This document shows positions 1,490 through 18,108 of a DNA stretch of 64,000 nt, piece by piece. The DNA comes from Microbacterium sp. EST19A (lineage in GTDB: Bacteria > Actinomycetota > Actinomycetes > Actinomycetales > Microbacteriaceae), in the NCBI RefSeq assembly GCF_019969685.1, contig NZ_JAHXYZ010000001.1, forward strand, positions 868,001 through 932,000, written 5' to 3'. Each line of letters begins with the position of its first letter. The stretch's first letter is position 1. A program made the translations under genes and the position numbers. The notes under the pieces are model-generated. The model was not told the origin of the DNA. It ran no database searches and saw nothing but the letters and a program-made list of their open reading frames with translations.

Positions 1490-3124
1490 TCAGATGCTCA
1501 CGTCTCCCACCAGGTTGACCTTGATGCCCATGCCCGCGAACATCGCCGCCTTGGCGATCAGCGCCTTGTCGGCCGTCTCGGCGTCGGGCGCGTAGACGAG
1601 CTGCGCGTGGTTGGCCTTGTGGCGGGCCATGAACTGGTCGCGCGAGATGCCGTGCAGCACGACGTGCGCGATCGGCCACTCCGGGTTCGTGGCGTCCTTG
1701 CGGCGCTGGGTCTCCTCTTCCGGCAGCTCGACGACCGACGCGCGGAAGATGTCGGCCTGCAGGATGCCGTCGGCGATGAATACCCGCGACAGCACGATCT
1801 CGCCGGGCTTCGAGACGCCGTTGATCGTCGCGCCTCCCGCCGGGAAGAACACGTGCCCCTGACGCCAGCCCTCCGCGTTCTGCCATCCACCGAGGTGCGA
1901 GGCCGGGACCGAGCCCGAGATCTCGTACACCCAGACGAACTGCCCGTCGAAGTCCTCGCCCCAGCGCACGTCGTGGAGGGTGTTGTCGGGCACCAGCCCC
2001 ATCGCGCGCCAGACCCGGTCGGTCACGAGCGCGTCGACCGCGACGCCTTCGTCGGCCTCGTTGAAGTGCGGGAACGCGCGACCCTCGTGCAGCACGCGCG
2101 AACCGTCGCGCGACGTGACCGGCGGACGCTCGGTGGAGTTCAGGATGCCTTCCGCCAGGTCGGATGCCGGCACGAGATCCTTCAGACCCTGCTGGTACTG
2201 GATGCCGACCGCGTCGAGGCCGAAGTCATCCGCGATGCGCAGGGCGGCGATGTACATCTTCATCTGCCACTGCACCTGCTCGCGGGTGAGTTCGGTGGCA
2301 GCATCCTCGCCGTACTGGAAGGTCATGCCGGCATCGATCAGCCAGTCGTAGGCGGCGTTGGCCTCGTCCTCCGAGACCTTGAGCATCTCGGCGTACAGGG
2401 CCGACTGCGACAGGCGCTCCTTGTAGATGCCGGTCTTGTTCAGCAGCTCGTCGTCGAAGATGGCGTTGTACATGCCCATGCATCCCTCGTCGAAGACGCC
2501 GATGATGGCCTTCTCGGCGAGCAGCTCGGCGGCGAGCGCCTCGCCCAGCTGCTTCTCCGGGCTGTCCGGAAGCTCGGGCAGGGCGCGCACGTGCGAGGCG
2601 TCGTGAGTGATGGAGCCCGTCTCGGTCCACTCCTTGATGCCGGCCTTGAACCAGTCGTCGCTGAAGTCGACCGACCAGATCGAGGCGTAGGGCTTGTCCA
2701 TCTTGGTGAGGCCTGCGTTCAGGCCGAGCAGGCCGACGAGCCCCGGCCAGTCCCCGGCGAAGTTCGCGACGGTGAGGATCGGCCCCTCGTGGGAGCGGAG
2801 GCCGGCGAGCACGTGGTGCGAGTACTGCCACACGGCCTCGGCGACGATGAGCGGAGCATCCGTCGGGATGTTCTTGAAGACCTCGAGGCCCATGCGCTGG
2901 CTCGAGATGAAGCCGTGACCGGTCGCGGGGTCGACCTCGTTGGCCCGGATGACGGTCCAGCCGAGGTCGTTGAACACCCCGGTGACGCCGGCCTCGAGCT
3001 CGACCTGCACGGGCCAGCCGCCGGTGTTGGCGGATTCGCGCAGATCGCCGGAAGCGATGAGGTACGCCGTCTTCGGCGCCGAGTCCGGACGGGATGCCGG
3101 GGTCGGCAGGGTGTAGGTGGTCAT
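1490..3124 (-). CDS. L-fucose/D-arabinose isomerase family protein (predicted D-arabinose isomerase)
   Basis: This 544-residue cytoplasmic protein resembles L-fucose isomerase family enzymes, which interconvert aldoses and ketoses using a divalent metal and often accept both L-fucose and D-arabinose (same configuration at C2-C4). Conserved-looking parts are the N-terminal domain (ASGDLRESANTGGWPVQ), the central FDEGCMGMYNAIFDDELL, which holds acidic residues of the kind that bind the metal, and a C-terminal domain with VLHGISRDQFMARHKANH. The ATG at 3124 overlaps the stop of the GH116 gene (ATGA), so translation is coupled. As the last gene of the kinase-GH116-isomerase operon it is predicted to turn D-arabinose into D-ribulose for the kinase at 5688. 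The exact substrate is inferred from context; I could not verify active-site residues by alignment. Confidence 0.75.
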   Translation of the reverse strand: MTTYTLPTPASRPDSAPKTAYLIASGDLRESANTGGWPVQVELEAGVTGVFNDLGWTVIRANEVDPATGHGFISSQRMGLEVFKNIPTDAPLIVAEAVWQYSHHVLAGLRSHEGPILTVANFAGDWPGLVGLLGLNAGLTKMDKPYASIWSVDFSDDWFKAGIKEWTETGSITHDASHVRALPELPDSPEKQLGEALAAELLAEKAIIGVFDEGCMGMYNAIFDDELLNKTGIYKERLSQSALYAEMLKVSEDEANAAYDWLIDAGMTFQYGEDAATELTREQVQWQMKMYIAALRIADDFGLDAVGIQYQQGLKDLVPASDLAEGILNSTERPPVTSRDGSRVLHEGRAFPHFNEADEGVAVDALVTDRVWRAMGLVPDNTLHDVRWGEDFDGQFVWVYEISGSVPASHLGGWQNAEGWRQGHVFFPAGGATINGVSKPGEIVLSRVFIADGILQADIFRASVVELPEEETQRRKDATNPEWPIAHVVLHGISRDQFMARHKANHAQLVYAPDAETADKALIAKAAMFAGMGIKVNLVGDVSI

Positions 3125-5691
3125 GATGCCTCCGGTGTTGGGGTCGTGGTGAGCGGGGCGCGATGGGTCTCGTCCGCTCGGAGTCGGATGCCGCGGCCGA
3201 TGCTCCGGCCGTGCAGCTGCAGGTCGGCGACGTCGAGCTCGCCGCCGTCGAGGTGGAGGGTGAGGGCGTCGTCGTCGATCTCGACGCGCCCCCAGCCCGT
3301 GCCCGTGGTGAACAGGAACCGCCCGCTCGCACCGATGGGCGCGAACGACAGCACTCCCGTCGGCGCGTCCCACTGCGCGCCGGTGGCACCCAGCAGCAGC
3401 GCCCACGACGCGAGCGAACGGGCGTAGTGGTTGCCGCATTCGATCTCGTTCCAGGGGCTGCGGTGACCGCCGTCGTAACGGGCCCGCAGCGTGCGCTCGA
3501 CGAGCAGGGCGTCGTCGTAGCGGCCGGCGAAGAGCAGGGATGCCGCGACCTGATGCTCGATCCCCGTCCACACCTCATCGGAGTACACGAAGGGGATGGC
3601 GGGTCGTCCGCCGCGGGGCCAGGAGGCGAGCAGCAGCCCACCCTCATCGTTCAGCGCGTAGACGCGCTGCGTGCTCTCGTGCGCGGACAGGTCGTCGCGG
3701 TGGTTGTGCGCGACGATCGCGGCCAGGGCGGAGTCGACGCGCTCGGCGGGCAGGATGTGCCCGAGCCCGTTGACGTAGGCGTGGAACTGACCGAGCAACT
3801 GATCGCTGAGGACACCCTCGCCGTACTGATAGCGGTGCGCGTCGGGGTCGTCGATCACCTGGCGGTAGTACTCGCCGTTCCAGAGGGTCGCGTCCATCGC
3901 GGCGGCGACATGGTCGGCACGGGTCGACCAGGATCGCGCCCGCTCGGTCTCGCCGAGGTGCCCTGCCATCCGGGCTCCCGCGCGGAGCGCCGCCAGGTAC
4001 ACGCCGTTCGCGAGCGGCTCCGCACCGTGGAACTCGATGTCGTAGGTGTTGTGCATCTCGCCGTCGAGCAGTCCGTCGCCGTCTCGATCCCATTCCCGGA
4101 TCGCGTAATCGAGAGTGCGGGATGCCGCGGGCCACAGCTCGCGCAGGAACCCGTCGTCGCCGCTGAAGCGCCACTCCCGGTGCAGGCGCAGCAGCGTGCC
4201 TAGCTGCCCGTCGACGGCCGGGGCCATGAACCACGACGGTCCTCCGAAGATGCGGTTGCCGCGGAACTTCTGGGCTCCCTCGTCATCGGTCTCGAGCAGG
4301 TACTCGACGCGTCGGGCGCTGCGCTCCAGCGAGGGGAAGAGCCAGGCGAGGGTCTGCGCGTACGACCAGACATGCGTGCAGGTGCCCTCGCAGGAGCCGC
4401 CGTGGTCGAAGGATCCCTCCCAGGCCGCGAACACCGGCCCCTCCCCCAGCTCGGGGTTCGGAGACTCCAGCACGAAGCCGGTTGTCGAGCGCGCTGCGGC
4501 GACGTTCGCGCCGATCGCGTCGACGAGCACCGGGTCGAGGCTGCTGCCGTAGAGGGCCTCGACGAAGGCATCCGTCGCCCCCTCGAGCGCGGGCAGTTCG
4601 CGGTGCAGGTGGCTCGCGGCCGCCCAGGCGTCGGCCCAGATGGTCGCGTAGTGGTTGCGGACCGTGGGCGACAGCGGGCCGTCCTCCGGCGGATCCGCGA
4701 ACACGATGTGGCCGTGCCAGCCGCGGCGCCGGTTCGGGAAGCTCCACGAGAGCACGAACTCGAAGTCGCGGGACTCCCCCGGAGCGAGCGTGTGCACGAT
4801 GCCGAGGGAGCCGGTGCGCAGGCGCGGCAGCTTCGCCAGCATCTGCTCCTCGGTGAGCGGAGCAGCATCCGGGTCGACGTCGAGCTCGGCGAACAGACCG
4901 CGCGGGCGGTCCTCGAGCGTCAGCCGCGGCTCGGCGGCGAGGAGTCCGTCGTCGGTCAGGTCGTTCCAGAACAGGCGCGCCCCGTCGGGCCAGTAGCTCG
5001 TGACCCACTGCGGTTTCACCGTGGTCTCGGCATCCGTCGTCGTGAGGCTCAGCGTGCCGTAGCCCGGATCGGCCTCGGGGAGATCGATGCCGAAGTCGAG
5101 GCCGCGGATGTCCCCGTCCTCGCGCCATCGCACGCTCTGCGTCGCGCGCATGCCCCAGGGAGCGTCGGGTCCCGGCGTGCCGCGGCCGGCGGTGTGCGAG
5201 ACGCTGCCCACCACGGTGACCGCGACTGGCACCGCGCCGGGGTTGGTCACCCGGTAGCGCAGCACCGCCGCCGGGATCCCGGACGCATCGGCGTCGAGCG
5301 GCACCAGCGGGGTGAACGCGTGCAGGGAGACATCGACCGGGAGCACCGCGTCGGTGAAGTCGACGTCGACCACGGGATACTCGCCGTGCAGAGTCGCGCC
5401 GTCGAGGCGCGGGAGCCCGGCCAGCTGGTCGAAGGCATAGCCGGCGTCGGCGTCGTGCCGCCCGGTGACCTTCGCCTCGAGCACCCGGGTCACGGGATCG
5501 CCGCCCTCGGGCCTCGCGTGGATCGCGAAGAACGAGTGCGGATTGCGCCGCCCCTTGTCCGGCAGGTTCTCGAACTCCCAGTCGCGCAGCTCGCCGCGAG
5601 CGCCGACCGAGACGTTGCCGGTGCCGATGCCGCCGAGCGGGAAGGCCGTCGCCTCGGAGGTGTGCGGGATGCCGCGCGCGCGCCGGCTCAT
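3121..5691 (-). CDS. GH116 glycoside hydrolase (predicted exo-beta-D-arabinofuranosidase)
   Basis: This 856-residue protein has the GH116 architecture: an N-terminal beta-sandwich starting near FPLGGIGTGNVSVGARGELRDWE, then an (alpha/alpha)6 catalytic barrel. The motif EGTCTHVWSYAQTLAWLFP marks the region of the catalytic nucleophile in the family, and EMHNTYDIEFHG contains the Asp expected as acid/base. There is no signal peptide, so the enzyme should act in the cytoplasm on imported oligosaccharides. Known GH116 activities include beta-glucosidase, glucosylceramidase and exo-beta-D-arabinofuranosidase. The last is favoured here because GH172, two GH183 proteins and an isomerase and kinase suited to D-arabinose share the locus. 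ATGA overlaps link it to the kinase upstream and the isomerase downstream. Confidence 0.85.
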   Translation of the reverse strand: MSRRARGIPHTSEATAFPLGGIGTGNVSVGARGELRDWEFENLPDKGRRNPHSFFAIHARPEGGDPVTRVLEAKVTGRHDADAGYAFDQLAGLPRLDGATLHGEYPVVDVDFTDAVLPVDVSLHAFTPLVPLDADASGIPAAVLRYRVTNPGAVPVAVTVVGSVSHTAGRGTPGPDAPWGMRATQSVRWREDGDIRGLDFGIDLPEADPGYGTLSLTTTDAETTVKPQWVTSYWPDGARLFWNDLTDDGLLAAEPRLTLEDRPRGLFAELDVDPDAAPLTEEQMLAKLPRLRTGSLGIVHTLAPGESRDFEFVLSWSFPNRRRGWHGHIVFADPPEDGPLSPTVRNHYATIWADAWAAASHLHRELPALEGATDAFVEALYGSSLDPVLVDAIGANVAAARSTTGFVLESPNPELGEGPVFAAWEGSFDHGGSCEGTCTHVWSYAQTLAWLFPSLERSARRVEYLLETDDEGAQKFRGNRIFGGPSWFMAPAVDGQLGTLLRLHREWRFSGDDGFLRELWPAASRTLDYAIREWDRDGDGLLDGEMHNTYDIEFHGAEPLANGVYLAALRAGARMAGHLGETERARSWSTRADHVAAAMDATLWNGEYYRQVIDDPDAHRYQYGEGVLSDQLLGQFHAYVNGLGHILPAERVDSALAAIVAHNHRDDLSAHESTQRVYALNDEGGLLLASWPRGGRPAIPFVYSDEVWTGIEHQVAASLLFAGRYDDALLVERTLRARYDGGHRSPWNEIECGNHYARSLASWALLLGATGAQWDAPTGVLSFAPIGASGRFLFTTGTGWGRVEIDDDALTLHLDGGELDVADLQLHGRSIGRGIRLRADETHRAPLTTTPTPEAS

Positions 5692-7181
5692 GCGGATACT
5701 CCCCGCTGGGTCGCGGCGAGCTCGTGCACGACGTCCTTCGAGCCCTCGTACAGCCGGACGTATCGGTCGAACAGCGTGTCGTAGAGGGGCTGGAGGGATG
5801 CGTCCGGGGTGATCGTCTCGGCGATGGGGTTCCAGTCGGTGATGACGGGGGCCGCACCGGTGCCGGCGGTCGCCGTCGCGGCCAGGAAGGCCGCACCGTA
5901 GCTCGCGCCGATCGTGGTCGCCGGAACCTCCTGGACGAGTCCCGTGATGTCGGAGACCACCTGCAACCAGAGGCGCCCCTGCGTGCCGCCGCCGACCGCG
6001 ACGATCCGGCGGATGTCGGCTCCCGCCGCGCGCATGGTCTCGACGTTGTGCCGCACGCCGAGCGCCGTCGCCTCGAGGGCGGCGCGGTAGAGATCGCCGC
6101 GCGTGTGCTCGAGGGTGAGCCCGGCGATGACACCGCGGGCATCCGGATCCTGGATCGGCGTGCGCTCGCCCGCGAAGTAGGGCAGCACGAGCAGACCGCG
6201 GGCGCCGGGCCCCGACGTCTCGGCATCCGCCAGCAGCTCCGGATAGTCGGTGCCGGTCAGGTCCTTCAGCCAGGCGGTGAGCGCGCCCGACGTGGAGAGC
6301 CCTCCGGCGAGATTGCGGGTGCCCGCGAACGCGCCGGCCGTCGTCCACATCGAGGGCGTGCGCAGCGTCTCCTCGCCGGTCGCCACGAGGAACATCGTCG
6401 TTCCGTACATCAGCATCAGGTCGCCGACCTCGTGCGCGCCGACGCTCACCGCCTCGGTCCAGGCGTCGATCGTGCCGGTGATGACGGGGGTCCCCGCGGG
6501 GATGCCGGTGGCGGATGCCGCTTCCGCTGTCACCACTCCGGCCACGTCGCCCGCCCACGCGAGCGCGGGCTGCTCGATGCCGTCGGCGTACCGCTCCCAC
6601 CACGGTTCGTACCAGCACTCGCTCTCGATGTCGTAGAGCGGCGAGACCTGACTCGCCGACTGGTGGTCGAACACGTACACCCCGGTGAGCTTGCGTACGA
6701 GCCAGGATGCCGGCATGAAGAGCCGACGGGCCCGGGCGCGGGCCGTGGGGTCTTCGTCGGCGATCCAGACGATCTTCGGACCGCCGGCCTGAGAGGTGAG
6801 CGTCGATCCGCCGACGCGGGCGATCTCGTCGACGCCGAGTTCTGCCGTCAGCCGCTCGATCTGCGCGGTCGAACGCGTGTCGACGCCGTAGAGGATCGCG
6901 GGACGCACCGGTTCGTCCGCCTCGTCGGCGAGGAGGATGCACGGCCCCATGCCGCTGACGCCGATCCCGGCGACCTCGGCATCCGGCGCGGCGGCGAGCA
7001 GCTCTCGGGCGATCGCCACGAACTCGTCCCACCAGACGCCTGCGTCCATCTCGACCCAGCCCGTGCGCGGGCGGCTGACGTCGTGCGCCCTGGTCGCGGT
7101 CGCGAGGATCACGCCGCCGCCACCGACCAGCACGCCTTTGCTGCTGGACGTGCCGATGTCCACCCCGAGGGTGCAGCGCAT
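5688..7181 (-). CDS. FGGY-family carbohydrate kinase (predicted D-ribulokinase)
   Basis: This 497-residue protein is an FGGY sugar kinase of xylulokinase-like organisation. The N-terminal phosphate-binding segment reads LGVDIGTSSSKGVLV (residues 5-19). The second actin-like domain carries FAGERTPIQDPDARGVIAGL and the ATP-binding AVGGGTQGRLWLQVVSD. Start choice is supported by a strong AAGGAGG site. It is first in the operon kinase-GH116-isomerase. Since the isomerase is of the L-fucose/D-arabinose type, the expected substrate is D-ribulose, giving D-ribulose 5-phosphate for the pentose phosphate pathway; L-fuculose or D-xylulose are alternatives. The promoter contains the palindrome shared across the locus (7238-7249). 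Confidence 0.85.
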   Translation of the reverse strand: MRCTLGVDIGTSSSKGVLVGGGGVILATATRAHDVSRPRTGWVEMDAGVWWDEFVAIARELLAAAPDAEVAGIGVSGMGPCILLADEADEPVRPAILYGVDTRSTAQIERLTAELGVDEIARVGGSTLTSQAGGPKIVWIADEDPTARARARRLFMPASWLVRKLTGVYVFDHQSASQVSPLYDIESECWYEPWWERYADGIEQPALAWAGDVAGVVTAEAASATGIPAGTPVITGTIDAWTEAVSVGAHEVGDLMLMYGTTMFLVATGEETLRTPSMWTTAGAFAGTRNLAGGLSTSGALTAWLKDLTGTDYPELLADAETSGPGARGLLVLPYFAGERTPIQDPDARGVIAGLTLEHTRGDLYRAALEATALGVRHNVETMRAAGADIRRIVAVGGGTQGRLWLQVVSDITGLVQEVPATTIGASYGAAFLAATATAGTGAAPVITDWNPIAETITPDASLQPLYDTLFDRYVRLYEGSKDVVHELAATQRGVSA

Positions 7182-7228: not shown

Positions 7229-7258
7229 ACTGTACGCGAAATCGATTTCAAGTAGCAA
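7229..7258 (-). promoter_or_regulatory. Promoter of the kinase operon with embedded LacI-type operator
   Basis: TTGCTA (7253-7258) and TACAGT (7229-7234) are 18 bp apart, and the perfect palindrome GAAATCGATTTC (7238-7249) fills the space between them. A bound LacI-family repressor would directly block RNA polymerase. The same palindrome occurs at 15926-15937 and 17144-17155, with a near copy at 8867-8878. Confidence 0.8.
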
Positions 7259-7385
7259 GCGGGAGTGACTGTCGCTGCACAGTTTGGGCGAGAGAAGAGT
7301 TGTCCTCGGTTCGCGTGATTCCGGGCCTGCTCGACCGGAATACCGTGACAATCTGGCCTTTCGTTCGCAGAATGGAGCCATGGAG

Positions 7386-7790
7386 ATGACCGAGCCGCAG
7401 GTGTGGACTCTGATCGGCGTGTTCGCTGCCGTGATGATCGGCGCGATCTCGCTGCTGCTGCGGCAGAACGACAAGACCCTGACAGCACTCTCCGGTCAGA
7501 ACCAGAACACGCTCACTATGCTCTCCCGGCAGAACGAGAACATGCTCACCTCGCTCTCCCGCCAGAACGAGAACGCCATCACCGCGCTCCGCAATGAGAT
7601 GAACGCCCGCTTCGACGGCTTCCAGATGCACTTCGAGGCCAAGTTCGAGACCCTCGAGAACAAGTTCGACACGAAGTTCGAGACCCTCGAGAACAAGATC
7701 GACACCCGACTGGGTTCGATCGACCGCCGACTCGAAGATCTCGACAAAGAGGTGGCGAATCTCGCGACGCGCTTCTGGAAGTCCTCCTGA
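7386..7790 (+). CDS. Small membrane-anchored coiled-coil protein
   Basis: This 134-residue protein of unknown function has one N-terminal membrane helix (about 5-25, VWTLIGVFAAVMIGAISLLL). A long, highly charged coiled coil built from near repeats follows. The first half has three variants of the unit LSRQNENMLTS, the second half two nearly identical 11-residue units (KFETLENKFDT), and the end reads DRRLEDLDKEVANLATRF. A GGAG site 8 bases upstream supports the ATG at 7386; an ATG at 7380 is an alternative. It lies between the kinase operon and the LacI gene but on the other strand, and carries none of the shared operator, so a link to sugar use is doubtful. Its end converges on lacI. Confidence 0.75.
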   Translation: MTEPQVWTLIGVFAAVMIGAISLLLRQNDKTLTALSGQNQNTLTMLSRQNENMLTSLSRQNENAITALRNEMNARFDGFQMHFEAKFETLENKFDTKFETLENKIDTRLGSIDRRLEDLDKEVANLATRFWKSS

Positions 7791-7802: not shown

Positions 7803-8786
7803 TCAGCTGCGCTTGCTGGCCGGCTGCACCTCGTTGCGCAGCACCACCGTGCGCGCCGGCTGCTTGTCGCCCTTGATGCGCTCGAGCAGCATCCGCGCCG
7901 CCGTCACTCCCATGTGCCGGGCGGGCAGCCTCACGACGGTCACCGCACTGGGCGACAGGGTGGTGAACGGCAGAGAGCCGATGACGGCCACGCCGACTTC
8001 GGGCGGAGTGAGCCCGTGCTCGGTGAGCACCTGGATCGCGCCGACGCCGATGAGGTTGTTTCCGGCGACCACCGCGTCAGGCGGCTCGGGCAGGGCGAGG
8101 AGCTCCTCCATCGCCGCGCGGCCGCCGTCGACGCGGAAGGTCTCGAACCGCTGCAGACCGTCGAGGTCGAGATCCGGATGAGCGGCGGTGAGCACGGTTC
8201 GCCAGCCCGCAGCACGCTCTGCCGCGGTGTCGATGTGCTCGGGGCCGCCGATGTAGGCGATGCGCCGGTAACCCGCGTCGATGAGGTCTTTCGTGGCCGA
8301 CGTCCCGGCTGCACGGTTGGCCATGACGACCCCGTCGATGTCGTAGGTCGTGCTGCGGTCGACGGCGACGACGGGGCGCCCGGTGGCGAGGATGGTGTCG
8401 AGATTGGTGCTCTCGTCGGCCGTCGCGATGATGATCCCCGACATGTGCTCGGCGATCGCGATCCGGAGATACGTGGCCTCTTTGTCGACCTGCGCATCGG
8501 AGTTGCAGAGCACGACCGAGTAGCCCGCCTCCGAGGCGACGTCCTCGACACCGCGGGCCATCTCGGTGAAATACGGGTTCTCGATGTCGGGGATGACGAG
8601 GGCGATGACCTCGGAGCTCTGCCGCCGGAGCGTCCGCGCGGTGCGGTTCGGTGTGAAGCTCAGCTTCTCGGCGGCATCGCGGACGGCGGCGACCTTCTCG
8701 TCCGACACGCTCGTGCCGTTGAAGACGCGTGAAACCGTCGCAGGAGAGACTCCCGCGAGCTCTGCGACGTCGTAGATCGTGGACAT
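7803..8786 (-). CDS. LacI family transcriptional regulator of the arabinan locus
   Basis: This 327-residue protein has the full LacI layout. The helix-turn-helix and hinge region TIYDVAELAGVSPATVSRVF (residues 3-22) is followed by a periplasmic-binding-protein-like ligand domain beginning IALVIPDIENPYFTEMARGVE. It sits in the middle of the hydrolase, transport and kinase genes and is the only LacI regulator in the window. I infer that it binds the palindromes at 7238, 8867, 15926 and 17144, and that D-arabinose, D-ribulose or an arabino-oligosaccharide releases it. The palindrome at 8866-8879 lies about 80 bp upstream of its own start and could also allow autoregulation. Confidence 0.92.
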   Translation of the reverse strand: MSTIYDVAELAGVSPATVSRVFNGTSVSDEKVAAVRDAAEKLSFTPNRTARTLRRQSSEVIALVIPDIENPYFTEMARGVEDVASEAGYSVVLCNSDAQVDKEATYLRIAIAEHMSGIIIATADESTNLDTILATGRPVVAVDRSTTYDIDGVVMANRAAGTSATKDLIDAGYRRIAYIGGPEHIDTAAERAAGWRTVLTAAHPDLDLDGLQRFETFRVDGGRAAMEELLALPEPPDAVVAGNNLIGVGAIQVLTEHGLTPPEVGVAVIGSLPFTTLSPSAVTVVRLPARHMGVTAARMLLERIKGDKQPARTVVLRNEVQPASKRS

Positions 8787-8865: not shown

Positions 8866-8881
8866 TGAAATCGATTACATT
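8866..8881 (+). promoter_or_regulatory. Operator and -10 box of the GH172 gene
   Basis: TGAAATCGATTACA (8866-8879) is a near copy of the locus palindrome, with one base differing inside the GAAATCGATTTC core. It overlaps a -10-like TACATT (8876-8881) that is followed by exactly seven bases and then the ATG at 8889. That spacing suggests a leaderless transcript under direct LacI control. A -35 box is not obvious. Confidence 0.65.
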
Positions 8882-8888
8882 GGCGCCC

Positions 8889-10022
<1,134 letters not shown>

Positions 10023-10041: not shown

Positions 10042-10482
10042 TCAGCTCAACCAGGCGGGGACCCTCCCGCGCAGCAGAGCGCCGTCGAGGGAGAACCTGC
10101 CTGCGCCGGTGAAGGCGAGCGCGAGCGCCGCGACTCCGAGAACGGCGACGAACTCGTAGCCGCCGTCGCCGACCCAGAGTCCTGCCGGAAGGTGCACCGC
10201 CACGAGGGCGACGACCATGTCGGCGGCGAGCAGGATGCCCACCGGGCGCGTGAAGAACCCGACGATCAGCAGGATGCCGCCGACGAGCTCGATGAAGGCG
10301 ACGACCGGGGCGGCGATCTCGGGGAGCGGCACTCCCATGCCGGCGAAGCTGCCGATGGTGCCGGGGATCGTGTACTCGAAGATCTTCTGGCCACCGTGCG
10401 CGGCGAAGACGGCGCCGACGACGATGCGAAGGACGAGGAGTCCCAGCGAAGCGGAGGCAGAGGGGCGGGTGGTGTTCGTCAT
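10042..10482 (-). CDS. DoxX family membrane protein
   Basis: This 146-residue protein has the four membrane helices of the DoxX family. Diagnostic parts are LVLRIVVGAVFAAHGGQKIFE near the N-terminus, AFIELVGGILLIVGFFTRP in the middle and ALALAFTGAGRFSLD near the end. DoxX proteins are linked to thiosulfate or redox stress handling, but most are uncharacterised. It converges on GH172, carries no copy of the locus operator, and probably is not part of sugar use. Confidence 0.88.
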   Translation of the reverse strand: MTNTTRPSASASLGLLVLRIVVGAVFAAHGGQKIFEYTIPGTIGSFAGMGVPLPEIAAPVVAFIELVGGILLIVGFFTRPVGILLAADMVVALVAVHLPAGLWVGDGGYEFVAVLGVAALALAFTGAGRFSLDGALLRGRVPAWLS

Positions 10483-10607
10483 GAGGAGTTCTTCCTTCGT
10501 GGCAGGACACGCGCGCGCCAGGCGCGGAGCAGGGGCATTCCCTTCTTCGACGCTACGAAGACGAGCTTTCCGTCTCCTGAGTGTCGGCCGCCCGATATCC
10601 TCCAGAG

Positions 10608-11450
10608 ATGCAGCGTGGATTCCGGCAGGTGGATGTGTTCGGCGACACCCCGGGGACGGGCAACCCCGTCGCCGTGGTGCTCGATGCGGAGGGGCTGAGC
10701 GACGACGAGCTGCGCCGCTTCTCGGTGTGGACGAACCTCTCCGAGTGCACGTTCGTCCTGCCGCCGACCGACCCCGCCGCGGACTACCGCGTCCGCATCT
10801 TCAGCCTGAGCACCGAGCTCCCGTTCGCGGGGCATCCGACGTTGGGCACCGCGAGGGCGTGGTTGGATGCCGGCGGCGTGCCGGCCGATCCTGACACGGT
10901 GATCCAGCAGTGCGCTGCCGGCCTGATCCCCGTGCGGGTCGAGGGCGACCGCCTCGCCTTCGCCTCGCCGCCCCGGACCCGGGCGGGGGCCGTCGACCCC
11001 GAGCTCGTCGCGGAGCTGGTCGAGATCCTCGGGATCGACCGCGACCAGGTCGTGGATGCCGAGTGGCTCGACAACGGCCCCGGCTGGGTCGGGCTGCTGC
11101 TCGACGGCGCCGAGACGGTGCTCGGCCTCCGTCCCGACGCGTCGGCGCATCCGGGCCGCTGGGACATCGGCGTGATCGGCATGCACCACGACGGCGCGGA
11201 GACCGCGTTCGAACTGCGCGCCTTCTTCACCGACGGTGACGGGCCCCTGCGCGAGGACCCCGTGACGGGAAGCCTGAACGCGGCCGCGGCGGAGTGGCTG
11301 CTCGCGACCGGACGCGCCCACGCGCCGTACGTGGCGGCGCAGGGCACCGCGATCGGACGGCGTGGACGGGTCCACATCACGCAGGATGCCGATCACGTCT
11401 GGGTCGGCGGCCGCTCCGACGTGATCATCTCGGGGCTCGTGAAACTCTGA
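10608..11450 (+). CDS. PhzF family isomerase/epimerase
   Basis: This 280-residue protein belongs to the PhzF family, which shares the diaminopimelate epimerase fold with two related halves. The family's N-terminal FRQVDVFGDTPGTGNPVAVV and the active-site block NLSECTFVLPP, LPFAGHPTLGTA are present. The DPVTGSLNAAAAEWL segment matches the second half's phosphate- or anion-binding loop. TATCCT followed by six bases and the ATG suggests a leaderless message. PhzF-like proteins are widespread and mostly of unknown substrate. No phenazine genes are nearby, so that role is not expected. Confidence 0.9.
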   Translation: MQRGFRQVDVFGDTPGTGNPVAVVLDAEGLSDDELRRFSVWTNLSECTFVLPPTDPAADYRVRIFSLSTELPFAGHPTLGTARAWLDAGGVPADPDTVIQQCAAGLIPVRVEGDRLAFASPPRTRAGAVDPELVAELVEILGIDRDQVVDAEWLDNGPGWVGLLLDGAETVLGLRPDASAHPGRWDIGVIGMHHDGAETAFELRAFFTDGDGPLREDPVTGSLNAAAAEWLLATGRAHAPYVAAQGTAIGRRGRVHITQDADHVWVGGRSDVIISGLVKL

Positions 11451-11464
11451 CCGCTGCCGTCAGA
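11446..11464. terminator. Short hairpin between convergent genes
   Basis: TCTGAC (11446-11451) and GTCAGA (11459-11464) form a six-pair stem that spans the stop codons of the PhzF gene and the convergent GH183 gene. It could serve both as a weak terminator; there is no clear U-run. Confidence 0.35.
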
Positions 11465-12560
11465 CCAGGCCTTGCACCCGGAACTGCTCGGAGTGGTAGA
11501 CGCTGTTGTTGCCGGTGTTCCACTGGCTGACGCTGAGATGCAGGTCCGACAGGGTCGATCCGGGGATGATGTAGCCGCCGTACAGCTGTGCGACGTGCGA
11601 AGCGTCCTCCGCGTTCCACTCGCTGCCGTACAACAGCGTGGTCTTCGTCGCCGTGTAGAGGTTGTCGGTCGGCGTGTTGAGCACCATCGCGTCGATCCGG
11701 TACGCCGGGGCGTTGAACCACGTCAGGATCCATTTGCCGCCGAGGGGCCGCAGGCACATCTCGCCGAAGCCACCGGACAGCACCTCGGTCACCGGCTTGC
11801 CCCAGCCCCAGGACCCGTTCGCGAACCCCCACGGCTGATAGGCCGAGAGCGTGGTCATGTTGTTCGACGGCACCCGGTAGAGCACGATGCCCTTGTCTCG
11901 CTGGAACCCCGTGCCGTAGATGTACACGTAGCCGTCGCTGCCGAGTCCCCACGTGATGCACTGGAACTTGCCGCCGGCCATGTCGGCGGGGAACTGCAGC
12001 CCGGTGTGCTGCCAGGTCGCGCCGTTGTCGTCCGACTTCCACAGCTCGGTCCATCGCACGGCACCGAACGCCGGCCCGTTCACGATCGCGTGCAGGTACA
12101 TCCGCGATCCGATCGTGATGACGTCGGACGGGATGACGGTCGTGAAGTACGCGTCATGCGGGTAGTACCAGAGCTGCGGCGCCACGCCCTGCGTGTTCGC
12201 GCCCGCCCCGCCGCATCCGTTGAAAGTCACGCCGGCGTTGAGATTCGTCGTCGACGAGTACAGCGCCACCGGCGAGCGCCAGTTCGCGCCGCCGACGTGG
12301 TCGGCCCAGGTGTCGCCGAACAGGAAGAGCATCCGCCCGTCCGGCGTGCGAGCAGGGATGCCGAGATCGGTCGCGCCCACGCCGTACTGCAGCGGGCTCT
12401 GGGTGCCGGCGAGCACCTTGATCCTCGTGACGGTGAGTCCGGCGGCTGATGCCGATGGCGCCGGTACCGTCGCCGCGACGAACGCGGCGCCGAGCACGGC
12501 GGCTCCTTGCAGCACTCCTCGACGACTGATTCCGCCACCGTGCGTGTTCTGGGTCTCCAT
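11460..12560 (-). CDS. GH183 (DUF4185) protein, Tat-exported (predicted endo-D-arabinanase)
   Basis: This 366-residue protein has a twin-arginine signal (ISRRGVLQGA, residues 11-20) followed by a hydrophobic stretch and an alanine-rich cleavage region near residue 40, so it is exported folded. The mature part matches DUF4185, a five-bladed beta-propeller family now recognised as GH183 endo-D-arabinofuranases. It shares with the second copy at 15968 the pattern TDLG (64-67) followed by FLFGDT (79-84), whose aspartates are candidates for catalysis. A strong GAGGAGAGG site fixes the ATG at 12560. It is the last gene of the importer operon (SBP, two permeases, hydrolase), which places enzyme and transporter under the same operator at 15926. 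Confidence 0.85.
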   Translation of the reverse strand: METQNTHGGGISRRGVLQGAAVLGAAFVAATVPAPSASAAGLTVTRIKVLAGTQSPLQYGVGATDLGIPARTPDGRMLFLFGDTWADHVGGANWRSPVALYSSTTNLNAGVTFNGCGGAGANTQGVAPQLWYYPHDAYFTTVIPSDVITIGSRMYLHAIVNGPAFGAVRWTELWKSDDNGATWQHTGLQFPADMAGGKFQCITWGLGSDGYVYIYGTGFQRDKGIVLYRVPSNNMTTLSAYQPWGFANGSWGWGKPVTEVLSGGFGEMCLRPLGGKWILTWFNAPAYRIDAMVLNTPTDNLYTATKTTLLYGSEWNAEDASHVAQLYGGYIIPGSTLSDLHLSVSQWNTGNNSVYHSEQFRVQGLV

Positions 12561-12571: not shown

Positions 12572-13468
12572 CTACTTGAGTCCCGCCATCTTGATGTTGC
12601 CGATGATTTGGCGCTGGAAGATCAGGAACAGGATGATCACGGGCGCCGCGGCCAGCACGGATCCGGCCATCAGCAGCCCGAGCTCGGTGCTGCGCTCGGA
12701 TCGGAAGGTCGCCAGGTACTGCTGCAGCACGAAGCGCTCGGGCGACGTGATCGTCAGGATCGGCCAGACGTACGAGTTCCAGTACGCGAGGAACGCCGTG
12801 ATGCCCATGACGACGAAGGGCGGCTTCGACAGAGGCAGGAAGATGCGCACGAAGATGCCGAACCGGCCGCAGCCGTCGAGCATCGCCGCCTCTTCGAGGC
12901 TCTTCGGGATGTTCAGATAGAACTGCCGGATGAAGAACACCATGCCGGCGCTGGCGAGCCCGGGGATCACCAGCACGGCGAGGGTGTCGAGCATGGACAG
13001 GCGCGTCACGACGATGAAGCTCGTGAGCAGGATGGTCATGCCCGGGATGAACATCGTCGTGATCACGATCGCCCAGATCGTGCCCTTGAAGCGGAAGTCG
13101 AGACGCGCGAAGGCGTAGGCGGCCAGCGAGTTGACCGCGAGGCTCCCCACGGTGAACAGCACGGCGCCCATGAAGGTCCACACCAGCGTCTGCAGGAACG
13201 TCGGGTCGGCGAGGATCTGCGCGTAGTTCTGCCACAGCCACACTTCGGGGAAGAACTGGAACGGCGTCTCGACGACCTCGGTCTTCGACTTGAAGCCGGC
13301 GATCACCATCCAGGCGAGGGGGAACAGCGAGGCGATCACGAAGATCGCACCGAGGATCACCTTGCCGAGGACAACGAGCCAGCCGCCCGCGGTGCGCGGT
13401 GCCTTCCGCTGTGCGCGGGGCTCCTTGCCGGCGAGGACGATACGGGTGGTCTCCTGCATGACGGCCAT
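12572..13468 (-). CDS. ABC sugar permease, CUT1 family (MalG type)
   Basis: This 298-residue inner-membrane protein has six predicted helices and the EAA loop LEEAAMLDGCGRFGIFVRIFLPL that docks the ATPase. It starts one base after the stop of the partner permease (13470) and ends 11 bases before the GH183 gene, so the four genes form one operon. Together with the MalF-type partner and the binding protein at 14470 it should import oligosaccharides, here predicted to be D-arabinofuranosyl oligosaccharides. No ATPase gene is present in the operon. Confidence 0.9.
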   Translation of the reverse strand: MAVMQETTRIVLAGKEPRAQRKAPRTAGGWLVVLGKVILGAIFVIASLFPLAWMVIAGFKSKTEVVETPFQFFPEVWLWQNYAQILADPTFLQTLVWTFMGAVLFTVGSLAVNSLAAYAFARLDFRFKGTIWAIVITTMFIPGMTILLTSFIVVTRLSMLDTLAVLVIPGLASAGMVFFIRQFYLNIPKSLEEAAMLDGCGRFGIFVRIFLPLSKPPFVVMGITAFLAYWNSYVWPILTITSPERFVLQQYLATFRSERSTELGLLMAGSVLAAAPVIILFLIFQRQIIGNIKMAGLK

Positions 13469-13469
13469 C

Positions 13470-14402: not shown

Positions 14403-14424
14403 CTCGTCGCGATCTCAGGGCGAC

Positions 14425-14461: not shown

Positions 14462-14469
14462 GAGCGATG

Positions 14470-15837
14470 TCAGTTCTTGGGCGCCTTGTCGGGCAGCCCG
14501 TCACGGTCGATGACCGTCTGGATCGCGGCGTTGGCCGTGTTGATCGCGTCGTCCACCGATGCGGAGCCCTTCATCACGGACTCCATCGCGGTGCCGACGG
14601 CGAGGTTGACATCCCACGGGTAGAGGGAGCCCGCGATGGCCTCGGGGGCGATGTCGTCGACGATGATGCTCGACCACGGGGCGTCTGCGGCCTCCTGGCT
14701 CGCGGCGACGGCATCCTGCACCGACTGGCGCACGGGAACCTTGGTGAACTGGGTGTCGACGAAGAACGGCACGAGGTTCTCCGGGTCGCCGGCGATCGAC
14801 CACTCGAGGAACTTTCCGGCGGCCTCCGCGTTCTTGCTCTTGGCGTCGACCACCCAGGTGAAGTTGCCCATCGTGGTGGCGGTGCGGCCATCGGCATCCG
14901 GCGAGTTCGGGAACGCGCCGACTCCGGTCTTGGGCAGCAGGTCGGCGTAGTCGGAGCCGATCTCGGACATCATCCACGAGCCGGAGACCTTGAAGGCGAC
15001 CTTCTGCTGGCCGAAGTCCTCGCCTCCGACGTACGCGGCGAGAGGCTGCTTCGGCATGTAGCCCTTGTCCCACAGCTCCTTGTACTGCTCCATCAGCGCG
15101 CGGTAGCCGTCGTTGTCGATGTCGGGCTTGGCCCAGTCGTCGCTGAGGGCGAGGTGACCGCTGAAGTTCCACTGCTGGCCGACGGTGGACCAGGCCATGG
15201 TCACGGCATCCTGTGCCGGCGAGATGCAGTACTGGCCGTCGGCGAGCGTCGGCTGGATCTTCGCGCAGGCGGCGAGGAGGTCGTCCCAGGTCTCGGGAGC
15301 GGCGGAGGAGTCGACGCCCGCGGCGTCGAGCATGTCGGTGTTCCAGAACAGCACGGTCTGCGGCTCGAGCAGCAGCGGGTACGCGTAGTGCGTGCCGTCG
15401 ACCTCGGAGATCGACGTCGCGTTGTCGAGGATCTCGCCGATGGCCTCTTTCGAGACGATCGAGTCGAGCTCGTGCACCGAACCGGCGTTGACCAGGTCGA
15501 GCAGGTTGGCGGAGCTCGTGTAGACGTCGGGCGCCTTGCCCGCGGCCTGCGCGGCCTTCATCTTCTGGTCCCACGCGTCGGCAGGGACCTCGGTGTCGAC
15601 GACCTTGATCTCGTCCTGCGACTTGTTGAACTCCTTGACGATGTTGGCGTACCACTCGTTCTCCACCGGCGTGAAGCTGCGGTGCCAGAACTGGATGGTC
15701 GTGACGCCGTCTTCGCCGCCGTCTCCTCCGGCCGTGCCGCCGGGGGTGCCTGCGCCGCACGCGGCGAGCAGGGTGCCGACCGTCAGCGCGCCGAGAGCGG
15801 CGATCGCTGTCCGTCGGGTGCGGGTGGTGATTCTCAT
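14470..15837 (-). CDS. ABC importer solute-binding lipoprotein, CUT1 family (predicted arabino-oligosaccharide binding)
   Basis: This 455-residue protein has a lipoprotein signal with lipobox LLAACGAG (Cys about residue 27) and a glycine-rich linker. Its family 1 substrate-binding fold begins TIQFWHRSFTPVENEWYANIVKEFNKS and continues with PDVYTSSANLLDLV. It is the first gene of the importer-GH183 operon, and GAGGAGG lies just upstream of the ATG. The ligand is inferred from the locus: products of the two GH183 enzymes. The promoter at 15917-15945 carries the LacI-type palindrome. Confidence 0.88.
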   Translation of the reverse strand: MRITTRTRRTAIAALGALTVGTLLAACGAGTPGGTAGGDGGEDGVTTIQFWHRSFTPVENEWYANIVKEFNKSQDEIKVVDTEVPADAWDQKMKAAQAAGKAPDVYTSSANLLDLVNAGSVHELDSIVSKEAIGEILDNATSISEVDGTHYAYPLLLEPQTVLFWNTDMLDAAGVDSSAAPETWDDLLAACAKIQPTLADGQYCISPAQDAVTMAWSTVGQQWNFSGHLALSDDWAKPDIDNDGYRALMEQYKELWDKGYMPKQPLAAYVGGEDFGQQKVAFKVSGSWMMSEIGSDYADLLPKTGVGAFPNSPDADGRTATTMGNFTWVVDAKSKNAEAAGKFLEWSIAGDPENLVPFFVDTQFTKVPVRQSVQDAVAASQEAADAPWSSIIVDDIAPEAIAGSLYPWDVNLAVGTAMESVMKGSASVDDAINTANAAIQTVIDRDGLPDKAPKN

Positions 15838-15916
15838 GGTTCCTCCTCAGGGAACAGACTCCACATCGAGTCGCTGCTGTGCAGGCCGATCGATCCTCAG
15901 TGACCGGGTATGCGCC

Positions 15917-15945
15917 AGAGTAGGCGAAATCGATTTCATGCGCAA
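15917..15945 (-). promoter_or_regulatory. Promoter of the importer-GH183 operon with LacI-type operator
   Basis: TTGCGC (15940-15945) and TACTCT (15917-15922) are exactly 17 bp apart, and the perfect palindrome GAAATCGATTTC (15926-15937) occupies the spacer. This is the clearest copy of the layout seen in front of the kinase operon. Confidence 0.82.
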
Positions 15946-15967
15946 GGGAGATCGGCCCTCCGATATT

Positions 15968-17128
15968 TCAGTCGGCGCGTTCCAGGTCGGCCGAGAACCA
16001 GAACACGTTGTACGGATCCCAGAGCGAAAGGGTGAAGTGGATGCGACTCCCGTCCTCTGTGACGTACCGCGGATTCAGGTACGGCGAGTACAGTCCCGGG
16101 TACTCCGATCCGGGCACGAGTTCGAGCGGATCTCCCCACGGCCCCCAGGGCGTGATGCCCTCGCGGATGTAGGCGCTCCCGGCATCCGAATACGTCATGA
16201 TCCAGCGCTCGAGGTAGGTCGACCACATCACCGAGAGCTCCCCGATGGTGCCCTCGACGATCGTCTCCGCATCGGCCATGTCGTCGCTCCAGCGCGGCTC
16301 CTGGCCGTCCAGTCCGGCGAAATACGAGTACGACGACTGGTCCTCCACCGCGGCCTCGGTGGCGCGCACGCGCATCAGCTGCACGCTGCCGAACCGGCCC
16401 GAGGGGATGGACCAGAAGTAGATCCAGTCCTCGCCGCCGTCGGTGACCTGTGCCGTCGCGAACTGGATGAAGTTCGAGTCTCCGGGCCACTCGACGCCGT
16501 CGACGGGATCCCAGGTCTTTCCGCCGTCCCGCGAGACGATGAGCGCCGAGCGGTTCGCATCCCAGGCGCCGGGCTCGCCCCAGAACTTCACGGACATGTA
16601 CGAGACGTAGATCGTCTCGCCGATCGCGAAGCCGTATGTCGGGATCTTCGTGACCTCGCCACCGGCCCCGTTCGCGTCGTGATCGCCCTCGACGAGCGCG
16701 GCGGCGAGACCGATGTCATCCTCCACCCACCCCTCGAAGTCGATGCCGTCGGTCGGGTCGTCGTCGGTGGTCCAGGCGGCGACGTTCGACCTCCAGAAGC
16801 CGCCCTGGCCGCCGATCGACTCGGGATCCCGCTCGCCGAAGGTGTCTCCGAAGAGGAAGAACGTCTTGTCCCCGACATTCACCATCGACCCGAGGTCCGT
16901 GCCGGCCACCGAGACGGATGCCGTGTCGTTCATGGCATCGGGACCGGTGAGCTGCGCGATCTCGGTGAGGTCGGTCACACCCTCCAGCACGAACGGCTTG
17001 TCGGGGTTCGTGTCGACGCTCACCCCTCCCCCTCCCGCACAGCCGGCGAGACCTCCGGCCAGGATGACGGATGCCGCGAGGGCGGCGTGACGGAACGGGG
17101 CTCGACGGGGACCTCTGCGACGGTGCAT
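15968..17128 (-). CDS. GH183 (DUF4185) lipoprotein (predicted surface endo-D-arabinanase)
   Basis: This 386-residue DUF4185 protein has an Arg-rich N-terminus, a hydrophobic stretch and a lipobox LAGC (Cys30), so it should be anchored on the outer face of the membrane. The TDLG (77-80) and FLFGDT (91-96) segments match those of the Tat-exported copy at 11460, although the two proteins are otherwise quite divergent, suggesting different linkage or substrate preferences. The ATG at 17128 lies seven bases after TAGATT, a leaderless arrangement. It diverges from the unknown gene at 17176, and both promoters flank one operator at 17144-17155. Confidence 0.85.
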   Translation of the reverse strand: MHRRRGPRRAPFRHAALAASVILAGGLAGCAGGGGVSVDTNPDKPFVLEGVTDLTEIAQLTGPDAMNDTASVSVAGTDLGSMVNVGDKTFFLFGDTFGERDPESIGGQGGFWRSNVAAWTTDDDPTDGIDFEGWVEDDIGLAAALVEGDHDANGAGGEVTKIPTYGFAIGETIYVSYMSVKFWGEPGAWDANRSALIVSRDGGKTWDPVDGVEWPGDSNFIQFATAQVTDGGEDWIYFWSIPSGRFGSVQLMRVRATEAAVEDQSSYSYFAGLDGQEPRWSDDMADAETIVEGTIGELSVMWSTYLERWIMTYSDAGSAYIREGITPWGPWGDPLELVPGSEYPGLYSPYLNPRYVTEDGSRIHFTLSLWDPYNVFWFSADLERAD

Positions 17129-17135
17129 GATCCCG

Positions 17136-17168
17136 AATCTAGCGAAATCGATTTCAGAGCACTAGTGT
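17136..17168. promoter_or_regulatory. Shared operator between two divergent leaderless promoters
   Basis: The perfect palindrome GAAATCGATTTC (17144-17155) lies between a minus-strand -10 TAGATT (136-141 of 17136-17141) and a plus-strand -10 TAGTGT (17163-17168). Each -10 box is followed by exactly seven bases and an ATG (17128 and 17176). One repressor dimer could silence both genes. No good -35 boxes are visible. Confidence 0.75.
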
Positions 17169-17175
17169 CTTCGGC

Positions 17176-18108
17176 ATGCCTCTCTCCTCCGATCACCGGT
17201 GGCTTCAGCCATCCGGCGCTCCCAACGACGAGCCCCGCTCGGGACACGTCGACGGCATCCAGATCGGCATCCCGCCGATCCCCGGCCCTCGCGGCCTGCT
17301 CCGTGTCTTCACGCCCTATCTCGATCATCCCCGCGAGCGGCTGGTCAACTTCATCGCCGTCGAGCCGATCCCGCGGGGCGAGACCCTGCGCGGATTCTCC
17401 GAGCTCGAGCCGAGCACCCTCGATCCGGGTGAGCGCGGCAAGCGCTTCTGGTCCGCGGACGACGCGGATGCCGCCGAGCGAGGAGCGGGCGATGCCCCGG
17501 CCCGCGGCACGACGGAGGTCGTCGACGGGGTGGAGACCCTGACCGTGTGGATCGGCGTCGAGCGCTTCGACAACGCGGCGGACGTCCGCGTGCGTGTGCG
17601 GTTCTTCGCCGATCGCCCGCACGAGGTGGAGGTTGCCGGGTTCGCGAACGCTACGTCAGCCCCGCTGTCGCACCTGATCCTCACGGCGACGATGGGCAAC
17701 TGGGCGCGGCTGCGCCGGCTGCACCTCGCCGATCGCGTCGTGACCGCCGGCGAGCTCTGGCCGGACTTCTCCGGCACCGCGTTCGCCGAGCATGCGCGCT
17801 TCCCGCTGTCCGAGCTCTCCCGCGACGGGGATGCGGCAGTCGTGAGCGCGACCGGCGACGAGGAGGATCCGTGGTCGGTCGAGTACGCCGCCGACACGGC
17901 GGAGCACTGGCGCTTCCTCGGTCGTCGTGCCGTGCAGACGTGGCGCGTCGACGACCCGCATCCCGAGCTCGAGGCGGTGGTCAACGCCCGCTGGTCGTAC
18001 TGGGCGAGCGCGTCGCCGATCCCCGGCGGCCCCGCCTACGAGAACTTCGAGATCATCGAGCCGTTCCGCCAGGGTGCGGCGTTCCGGTTCTCGGTCGAGG
18101 AGGTCTGA
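17176..18108 (+). CDS. Protein of unknown function in the arabinan regulon
   Basis: I do not recognise a family for this 310-residue protein. It has no signal peptide or membrane segment, so it is predicted cytoplasmic. It is rich in beta-strand-forming segments with many Trp, Arg and acidic residues (GKRFWSADD, TLTVWIGVERFDNAADVRVRVRF, MGNWARLRRLHLADR, GELWPDF, NARWSYWASASPIPGGPAYENFEIIEP), which suggests a beta-sandwich or mutarotase-like carbohydrate fold rather than a Rossmann enzyme. Its only promoter signal is shared, through one operator, with the GH183 lipoprotein gene, so it should be induced with D-arabinan use. A role as mutarotase, accessory hydrolase or deacylase is possible but unproven. 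It converges on hspR. Confidence 0.75.
   Translation: MPLSSDHRWLQPSGAPNDEPRSGHVDGIQIGIPPIPGPRGLLRVFTPYLDHPRERLVNFIAVEPIPRGETLRGFSELEPSTLDPGERGKRFWSADDADAAERGAGDAPARGTTEVVDGVETLTVWIGVERFDNAADVRVRVRFFADRPHEVEVAGFANATSAPLSHLILTATMGNWARLRRLHLADRVVTAGELWPDFSGTAFAEHARFPLSELSRDGDAAVVSATGDEEDPWSVEYAADTAEHWRFLGRRAVQTWRVDDPHPELEAVVNARWSYWASASPIPGGPAYENFEIIEPFRQGAAFRFSVEEV

What the first reader, a model, noticed from the sequence alone, without database searches (positions are those of the whole stretch)
1490..18108. A compact D-arabinan utilisation locus
Four hydrolase genes from exactly the families known to dismantle mycobacterial D-arabinan (two DUF4185/GH183, one DUF2961/GH172, one GH116) lie within 17 kb, with a CUT1 importer, an L-fucose/D-arabinose-type isomerase, an FGGY kinase and a LacI regulator. 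The full set predicts growth on arabinogalactan or lipoarabinomannan via D-arabinose, D-ribulose and D-ribulose 5-phosphate. Hydrolase specificities are established for the families, including in Microbacterium; the importer, isomerase, kinase and regulator roles are inference from position and shared operators.
Basis: partly seen in the sequence, partly recalled or inferred. Interest (0 to 1): 0.92.

Follow-up and report, generated by a model that had tools for sequence, protein, structure and literature searches.

The report
Mycobacterial D-arabinan utilisation locus
A Microbacterium genome carries a compact gene set for eating D-arabinan, a sugar polymer of mycobacterial cell walls; that kind of gene set is already published, but this one shows a conserved protein of unknown reaction and a shared regulatory site that the published account's main text does not describe.

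Summary
Between 1490 and 18108 lie one GH116, one GH172 and two GH183 genes, importer genes without an ATPase, a fucose/arabinose-type isomerase, an FGGY kinase and a LacI repressor. Residues tied to D-arabinofuranose specificity in GH172 and GH116 are conserved here.

Two things go beyond that paper's main text. (1) The palindrome GAAATCGATTTC occurs three times in the 4.45 Mb genome, all in this locus ahead of its transcription units, plus a one-mismatch copy between lacI and GH172; relatives, including other actinobacterial families, keep it in the same places. (2) ORF310 (17176-18108, +) belongs to a family without Pfam, NCBIfam or PDB-sequence match. It shares the operator, is found in 39 of 295 Microbacterium genomes (all 39 also have ExoMA1-type GH172) and reaches Bacteroidetes and Planctomycetes; 51 of 67 loci hold a GH172, GH183 or GH116 relative nearby. 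Its confident model is mutarotase-like. I read it as an undescribed enzyme of D-arabinan breakdown; its reaction is unknown.

The parts
1490..3124 (-). L-fucose/D-arabinose-type isomerase (544 aa), likely D-arabinose to D-ribulose
   Evidence: Fucose_iso_C 36.9 bits; AF2 model (pLDDT 72.4) matches L-fucose isomerase 6k1f Z 25.7 and D-arabinose isomerase 3a9r Z 24.1; substrate inferred
3121..5691 (-). GH116 exo-beta-D-arabinofuranosidase (ExoMA2 counterpart, 856 aa), no export signal seen by eye
   Evidence: 1577 bits to 8ic6 over 2-848; 80% to the M. arabinogalactanolyticum gene; Glu431, Asp557, Arg483, His446 positions kept
5688..7181 (-). FGGY pentulose kinase (497 aa), likely D-ribulokinase
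   Evidence: FGGY_N and FGGY_C; below the cut-offs of all 12 NCBIfam kinase models listed, best XylB 295.2 against 380.25; substrate inferred
7238..7249 (.). perfect operator GAAATCGATTTC ahead of the kinase-GH116-isomerase unit
   Evidence: kept in relatives
7803..8786 (-). LacI-family repressor (327 aa), probable owner of the operator
   Evidence: LacI HTH 55.5 bits and Peripla_BP_1 114.3 bits; co-occurs with the operator in relatives; binding inferred
8867..8878 (.). operator with one mismatch, GAAATCGATTAC, between lacI and GH172
   Evidence: the site at this place has one mismatch in 27 of 27 loci where one search shows it
8892..10022 (+). GH172 exo-alpha-D-arabinofuranosidase (ExoMA1 counterpart, 376 aa from ATG 8892), no export signal seen by eye
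   Evidence: 818 bits to 8ic8; 91% to the M. arabinogalactanolyticum gene; Asn253 kept
11460..12560 (-). GH183 endo-D-arabinanase (EndoMA2 counterpart, 366 aa), Tat-type signal by eye
   Evidence: PF13810 233.7 bits; PDB hits 8an0 and EatA; 88% to the M. arabinogalactanolyticum gene
12572..13468 (-). importer permease
   Evidence: BPD_transp_1 43.5 bits
13470..14402 (-). importer permease
   Evidence: BPD_transp_1 45 bits
14470..15837 (-). substrate-binding lipoprotein of the importer
   Evidence: SBP_bac_1 103.3 bits; lipobox by eye
15926..15937 (.). perfect operator ahead of the binding protein-permease-GH183 unit
15968..17128 (-). GH183 lipoprotein, counterpart of MIAR_33320 (not assayed in the paper)
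   Evidence: PF13810 270.2 bits; 153.5 bits to EndoMA1 8hhv with Asp33, Asp51, Arg198, Glu243 positions kept; lipobox by eye
17144..17155 (.). perfect operator between GH183 and ORF310
17176..18108 (+). ORF310: unassigned protein family of D-arabinan loci, mutarotase-like beta-supersandwich model, no export signal seen by eye in this genome
   Evidence: no match in Pfam, NCBIfam or PDB sequences; AF2 pLDDT 93.6; fold matches; distribution

Best explanation
A LacI-controlled catabolic locus for mycobacterial-type D-arabinan. Two exported GH183 enzymes cut the polymer outside the cell; the binding protein and two permeases, powered by a shared ATPase encoded elsewhere, import oligosaccharides; cytoplasmic GH172 (alpha) and GH116 (beta) release D-arabinose; the isomerase makes D-ribulose and the kinase D-ribulose 5-phosphate. 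LacI holds four operators and is released by D-arabinose or a derivative. ORF310 is an additional, undescribed carbohydrate-active enzyme of the same regulon, working in the compartment where oligosaccharides are trimmed. Shown by others on close homologs: GH183 (EndoMA type), GH172 and GH116 activities, and induction. Shown here: homology, specificity residues, operator distribution, ORF310 family, fold model and co-occurrence. Inferred: importer, isomerase and kinase substrates, LacI binding and inducer, ORF310 activity (as a catalytic part of D-arabinan breakdown I put it at about 0.7).
For: Near-orthology to ExoMA1 and ExoMA2 and kept specificity residues. Same gene order round the LacI-GH172 and importer-GH183-ORF310 blocks as M. 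arabinogalactanolyticum, where induction was measured. Isomerase fold. One OB_MalK-type ATPase in the whole genome, at C6:49473, outside the locus. Operators: three perfect copies in the genome, all here; perfect copies in 32 of 38 actinobacterial loci; in a Rhodoglobus MAG only two perfect copies, one in the GH172 locus and one 72 bases before an ORF310 on another contig. ORF310 in 39 of 295 Microbacterium genomes, all 39 among the 64 with GH172 at 83% or more identity.
Against: No experiment on this strain. The kinase scores below every NCBIfam kinase cut-off listed and the isomerase has no PDB sequence match. EndoMA1, the shorter-product endo-enzyme of the published set, has no close counterpart among this genome's GH183s, whose third PF13810 match is below cut-off. 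ORF310 is missing in 25 of the 64 genomes with ExoMA1-type GH172, so it is not indispensable; of the 39, 2 hold only fragments and 2 are split. 6 of 35 ORF310 genomes outside Microbacterium lack GH183 and 1 lacks GH172, and in the Planctomycetes, Verrucomicrobia and like MAGs only 2 of 9 loci show a related hydrolase nearby.
Confidence: 0.9

Rival explanations
1. The hydrolases serve another furanoside (fructan, difructose anhydride) or plant glucosides, with D-arabinan a side activity.
For: GH172 also holds difructose-dianhydride and alpha-D-Fruf enzymes (7v1v is the second PDB hit) and GH116 is mostly beta-glucosidases.
Against: Scores are far higher to the D-arabinofuranosidases (818 against 115 bits; 1577 against 82 bits). 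Asn253, which blocks Fruf, and Arg483/His446, which replace the glucosidase residues, are kept. Two endo-D-arabinanase-family genes share the regulon.
Confidence: 0.04
2. ORF310 is an aldose 1-epimerase (mutarotase) that speeds ring opening of D-arabinofuranose freed by the exo-enzymes.
For: Fold matches to known mutarotases: 3ty1 Z 12.3, 2cir Z 11.8, 1nsu Z 11.5. Tracks GH172 more than GH183 (34 and 29 of 35 genomes). Glu289 near the C-terminus is invariant in 46 sequences.
Against: No histidine is invariant in 46 sequences, whereas galactose mutarotase uses a His/Glu pair (recalled). Non-mutarotase proteins with the same superfold score as high or higher (9awt Z 14.2, GH174 9k1g Z 13.1).
Confidence: 0.25
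3. ORF310 is the first member of a new glycoside hydrolase (or other glycan-cleaving) family removing a side group or linkage of D-arabinan that the four known enzymes leave.
For: Eight acidic and four arginine positions invariant in 46 diverse sequences; best Foldseek hit is the GH174 endo-fucanase; fused behind a GH97 in Bacteroidales; exported in most Gram-negative members looked at but not in actinobacteria, by eye.
Against: The published enzymes already degrade D-arabinan completely to monomers in vitro, so no missing bond is known; Foldseek E is only 8.3e-4 with TM 0.40; no active site was located in the model.
Confidence: 0.4
4. ORF310 is a non-catalytic binding or sensing protein of the locus.
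For: Fold superfamily includes non-catalytic domains; no assay exists.
Against: Dense invariant charged set across phyla and changing compartment fit an enzyme better.
Confidence: 0.15

Closest known systems
D-arabinan PUL of Microbacterium arabinogalactanolyticum JCM 9171 (MIAR_33170-33320; PMC10509167, sections 6-10 read)
   Same: Same GH116, kinase, LacI, GH172, EndoMA2-type GH183, importer, MIAR_33320-type GH183 and ORF310, 72-91% identical, with the same three perfect and one imperfect operators.
   Different: The window has two GH183 genes, not four; it lacks close counterparts of EndoMA1 (MIAR_33230) and MIAR_33220. Regulator and operator are not in the paper's main text; figures and supplements were not seen.
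D-arabinan PUL42 of Dysgonomonas gadei (PMC10115798, abstract and passages seen)
   Same: GH172, GH183 and a predicted fucose isomerase (most abundant CAZyme on D-arabinan).
   Different: Gram-negative type with three GH172; ORF310 in D. gadei itself not tested.
Galactose mutarotase-like superfold (GalM, GH174, GH186/OpgG, rhamnogalacturonan lyase)
   Same: ORF310 model aligns at Z 11-14 over 183-240 residues.
   Different: At most 12% identity; no sequence-level family match.

Membership tests
D-arabinan utilisation locus | GH183, GH172 and GH116 genes together with importer, isomerase and kinase | tested here: met
D-arabinan utilisation locus | Induction by D-arabinose or mycobacterial wall extract | not testable with these tools
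   Measured in M. arabinogalactanolyticum only
GH172 exo-alpha-D-arabinofuranosidase | DUF2961 fold family and Asn253 (not Gly) at the Fruf-blocking position | tested here: met
GH116 subfamily 4 exo-beta-D-arabinofuranosidase | Nucleophile Glu431, acid/base Asp557, Arg483 and His446 | tested here: met
   paper numbers are four below the chain index, worked out by hand
GH183 endo-D-arabinanase (15968-17128) | Asp33, Asp51, Glu243 of EndoMA1 | tested here: met
GH183 endo-D-arabinanase (11460-12560) | DUF4185 over cut-off and closeness to an assayed enzyme | tested here: met
   88% to the gene that by position is EndoMA2; catalytic residues compared by eye only
L-fucose/D-arabinose isomerase | Isomerase fold | tested here: met
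   model confidence moderate
L-fucose/D-arabinose isomerase | Metal ligands and activity on D-arabinose | not tested
   ligands not mapped
D-ribulokinase (FGGY) | Equivalog-level match | tested here: not met
   All 12 NCBIfam hits under their cut-offs; FGGY superfamily membership itself met
LacI regulator of this locus | Palindromic operator at the promoters, conserved with the regulator | tested here: met
   binding not testable
Aldose 1-epimerase (for ORF310) | Sequence match to the family | tested here: not met
   0 of 46 members match such a Pfam family even at E 1
Aldose 1-epimerase (for ORF310) | Mutarotase-like fold | tested here: met
Aldose 1-epimerase (for ORF310) | Conserved catalytic His/Glu pair (recalled) | tested here: inconclusive
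   Glu289 invariant, no invariant His; positions not superposed

The most novel reading that the evidence does not exclude
ORF310 is the founding member of an unrecognised carbohydrate-active enzyme family, with a mutarotase-like fold, that takes part in D-arabinan breakdown in Actinobacteria and Bacteroidetes and was overlooked in the published loci; its regulon is marked by GAAATCGATTTC, which recruits it even when it is unlinked from the locus.
Probability: 0.45. Interest if true: 0.7.

Novelty: new member of a known kind. Interest (0 to 1): 0.45.

Why it matters
Enzymes that take apart mycobacterial arabinogalactan and lipoarabinomannan are wanted as analytical tools. The locus itself adds a compact natural variant with only two endo-enzymes, one of a type (MIAR_33320) that has not been assayed. 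The operator defines the regulon and lets unlinked members be found by pattern search, as in the Rhodoglobus MAG. ORF310, if an enzyme, is a missing activity of a pathway thought complete in vitro.

Tried and rejected
Rejected: fructan or glucoside specificity. Rejected: the third PF13810 match in the genome (C6:1594624, 32.9 bits, below cut-off) as a further endo-enzyme. Considered and not upheld: that the imperfect lacI/GH172 operator explains the milder induction of GH172 (3.5- and 6.0-fold) in M. arabinogalactanolyticum; the two GH183 genes downstream on the same strand were induced over 10-fold, and I found no site of up to two mismatches close before them. Led nowhere: Pfam on 46 ORF310 relatives gave only single weak hits, best E 0.14; viral fold library gave no match with E up to 0.001; neighbours of ORF310 in Tessaracoccus, Microlunatus, Rhodoglobus, Phocaeicola and Prevotella sp. 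10(H) loci showed no common D-arabinan hydrolase among the ORFs tried, though those genomes carry GH172, and all but the Phocaeicola one GH183, elsewhere. Operators of up to two mismatches were absent from the ORF310 loci of Tessaracoccus and Microlunatus; Cellulomonas and Promicromonospora loci had only imperfect ones. No coordinates of models were at hand, so invariant residues could not be placed in an active site. Paper searches: no paper holds both 'D-arabinan' and 'mutarotase' or 'MIAR_33330' (the number is my inference from gene order); some searches returned the two 2023 papers as the only ones on these enzymes that I followed; other listed papers were seen as listings only.
Full report
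What is there. The window is part of a 4.45 Mb genome in 14 contigs whose same-genus relatives match named Microbacterium contigs by size. From 1490 to 18108 the gene order is isomerase, GH116, FGGY kinase (all -), LacI (-), GH172 (+), a DoxX-like gene (-, by eye), a PhzF-like gene (+), GH183, two permeases, a substrate-binding protein, GH183 (all -) and ORF310 (+). The GH116 frame runs open well past its start; the ATG at 5691, four bases into the kinase's end, is the likely one, and the isomerase starts at 3124. GH172 starts at ATG 8892, since the operator at 8867 lies inside the longer ORF.

Hydrolases. GH172 scores 818 bits to ExoMA1 (8ic8) and 115 to the next PDB sequence; GH116 1577 bits to ExoMA2 (8ic6) and 82 to the next. 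In the printed alignments the window keeps Asn253 of ExoMA1, which the authors say blocks fructofuranose, and Glu431, Asp557, Arg483 and His446 of ExoMA2 (residues, counted by hand). GH183 at 15968 is 153.5 bits from EndoMA1 and keeps Asp33, Asp51, Arg198 and Glu243 (residues). GH183 at 11460 is nearest in the PDB to 8an0 and EatA. By eye, one GH183 and the binding protein carry lipoprotein signals, the other GH183 a Tat-type signal, and GH172, GH116 and ORF310 none.

Comparison with the published locus. In M. arabinogalactanolyticum JCM 9171 (L041 and L101) the identities to the window are isomerase 89%, GH116 80%, kinase 82%, LacI 80%, GH172 91%, GH183 88%, permeases 87 and 85%, binding protein 72%, GH183 73%, ORF310 75%. 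Gene order and the numbers in the paper place these as MIAR_33170 to 33320, with ORF310 next; the numbers are matched by order, no tag was seen. The paper reports activity for EndoMA1, EndoMA2, ExoMA1 and ExoMA2, failure of MIAR_33220 and 33320 to express solubly, induction of the genes by D-arabinose and wall extract, and already proposes importer, isomerase and kinase roles. Hence the locus is a new member of a known kind, with two GH183s in place of four.

Downstream steps. The isomerase has no PDB sequence match, but its model (pLDDT 72.4) aligns to L-fucose isomerase 6k1f at Z 25.7 (306 residues, rmsd 3.0) and D-arabinose isomerase 3a9r at Z 24.1 (307, 3.2). In D. [quoted passage not shown] The kinase is FGGY but under all NCBIfam cut-offs listed. 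The only OB_MalK-type ATPase in the genome is at C6:49473, outside the window, so the importer probably borrows a shared ATPase.

Operator. GAAATCGATTTC occurs perfectly at 7238, 15926 and 17144 and nowhere else in the genome. With one mismatch there are six more places genome-wide, one at 8867 between lacI and GH172. In 38 actinobacterial ORF310 loci, 32 hold at least one perfect copy; L050, L051, L056, L061, L062 and L069 hold none. The copy between lacI and GH172 has exactly one mismatch in 27 of 27 loci where one search shows it. Perfect sites recur in Hamadaea, Asanoa and Antribacter. In a Rhodoglobus MAG there are two perfect sites in the genome: one in the GH172-LacI locus and one 72 bases before ORF310 on another contig. 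In Microlunatus, one-mismatch sites lie just before two GH183 genes and near a GH172 gene, yet none lies in its ORF310 locus. The words LacI, regulator, operator, repressor and transcription do not occur in the main text of PMC10509167.

ORF310 family. No Pfam, NCBIfam or PDB-sequence match for the window protein and no credible Pfam match for 46 members. In 295 genomes of the genus, 39 have it (2 as fragments, 2 split); 64 have GH172 at 83% identity or more; all 39 are among the 64 (Fisher p 5e-32 without correction for relatedness). A collection scan gave 67 loci in Actinobacteria, Bacteroidetes, Planctomycetes, Verrucomicrobia and others. A relative of GH172, GH183 or GH116 lies in the fetched stretch in 51 of 67: 34 of 38 actinobacterial, 17 of 29 other. 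In one Microbacterium group and in Hamadaea and Asanoa it follows the isomerase in the same direction; in Bacteroidales it follows GH172 or precedes GH116, and in L079 one frame holds GH97 plus ORF310. Genomes: GH172 in 34 of 35 and GH183 in 29 of 35 (27 over cut-off) ORF310 carriers outside Microbacterium; for the nine actinobacteria among them 9 of 9 and 9 of 9. In 246 genomes across the phylum GH172 is in 16, GH183 in 13, ORF310 in 1, the window's own (cut-off E 1e-10 in the phylum sample, 0.001 for the carriers). Six genomes of one unnamed family have several GH183 matches but neither GH172 nor ORF310, so ORF310 goes with catabolism rather than with GH183 alone.

What ORF310 may do. The model is confident (pLDDT 93.6, pTM 0.92) and is a mutarotase-like supersandwich: best Z 14.2 to an N-terminal part of a galactosaminidase (207 residues, rmsd 3.2), 13.1 to GH174 endo-fucanase (232, 4.1), 12.3 to 11.4 to aldose epimerases; Foldseek's best E is 8.3e-4. 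Eight acidic (Glu63, 76, 78, 129, 229, 289, 292, Asp83) and four arginine positions (39, 178, 180, 272) are invariant in 46 sequences; no histidine is. Most Gram-negative members looked at carry an N-terminal signal by eye, the actinobacterial ones do not, matching where oligosaccharides would be trimmed. I put a catalytic part in D-arabinan breakdown at about 0.7, split between a new glycan-cleaving family and a mutarotase.

Limits. Everything about function in this strain is inference. Figures and supplements of the papers were not seen. Signal peptides were judged by eye.

Noticed in passing
window 17176-18108, residue 22: The window's ORF310 has Ser at a position that is Trp in the other 39 sequences with a residue there; a single-base difference could weaken this copy or be a sequencing difference.
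   Followed up: partly
window 7381-7790 (+): Small open frame between kinase operator and lacI with degenerate Q-N-E-N / K-F-E-T-L-E-N repeats, possibly a membrane-anchored coiled coil; no Pfam scan made.
   Followed up: no
window 10042-11450: DoxX-like and PhzF-like genes sit inside the locus; DoxX recurs there in some relatives without evident role.
   Followed up: no
L079:7952-10909 and L082: GH97-ORF310 fusion in Bacteroidales (Pfam-confirmed in L079; L082 by open frame only).
   Followed up: partly
L065:1124-3154: Two ORF310 copies in tandem in an uncultured Alistipes contig.
   Followed up: no
window 18610-22164 (-): DnaK-GrpE-DnaJ cluster directly follows the locus.
   Followed up: no
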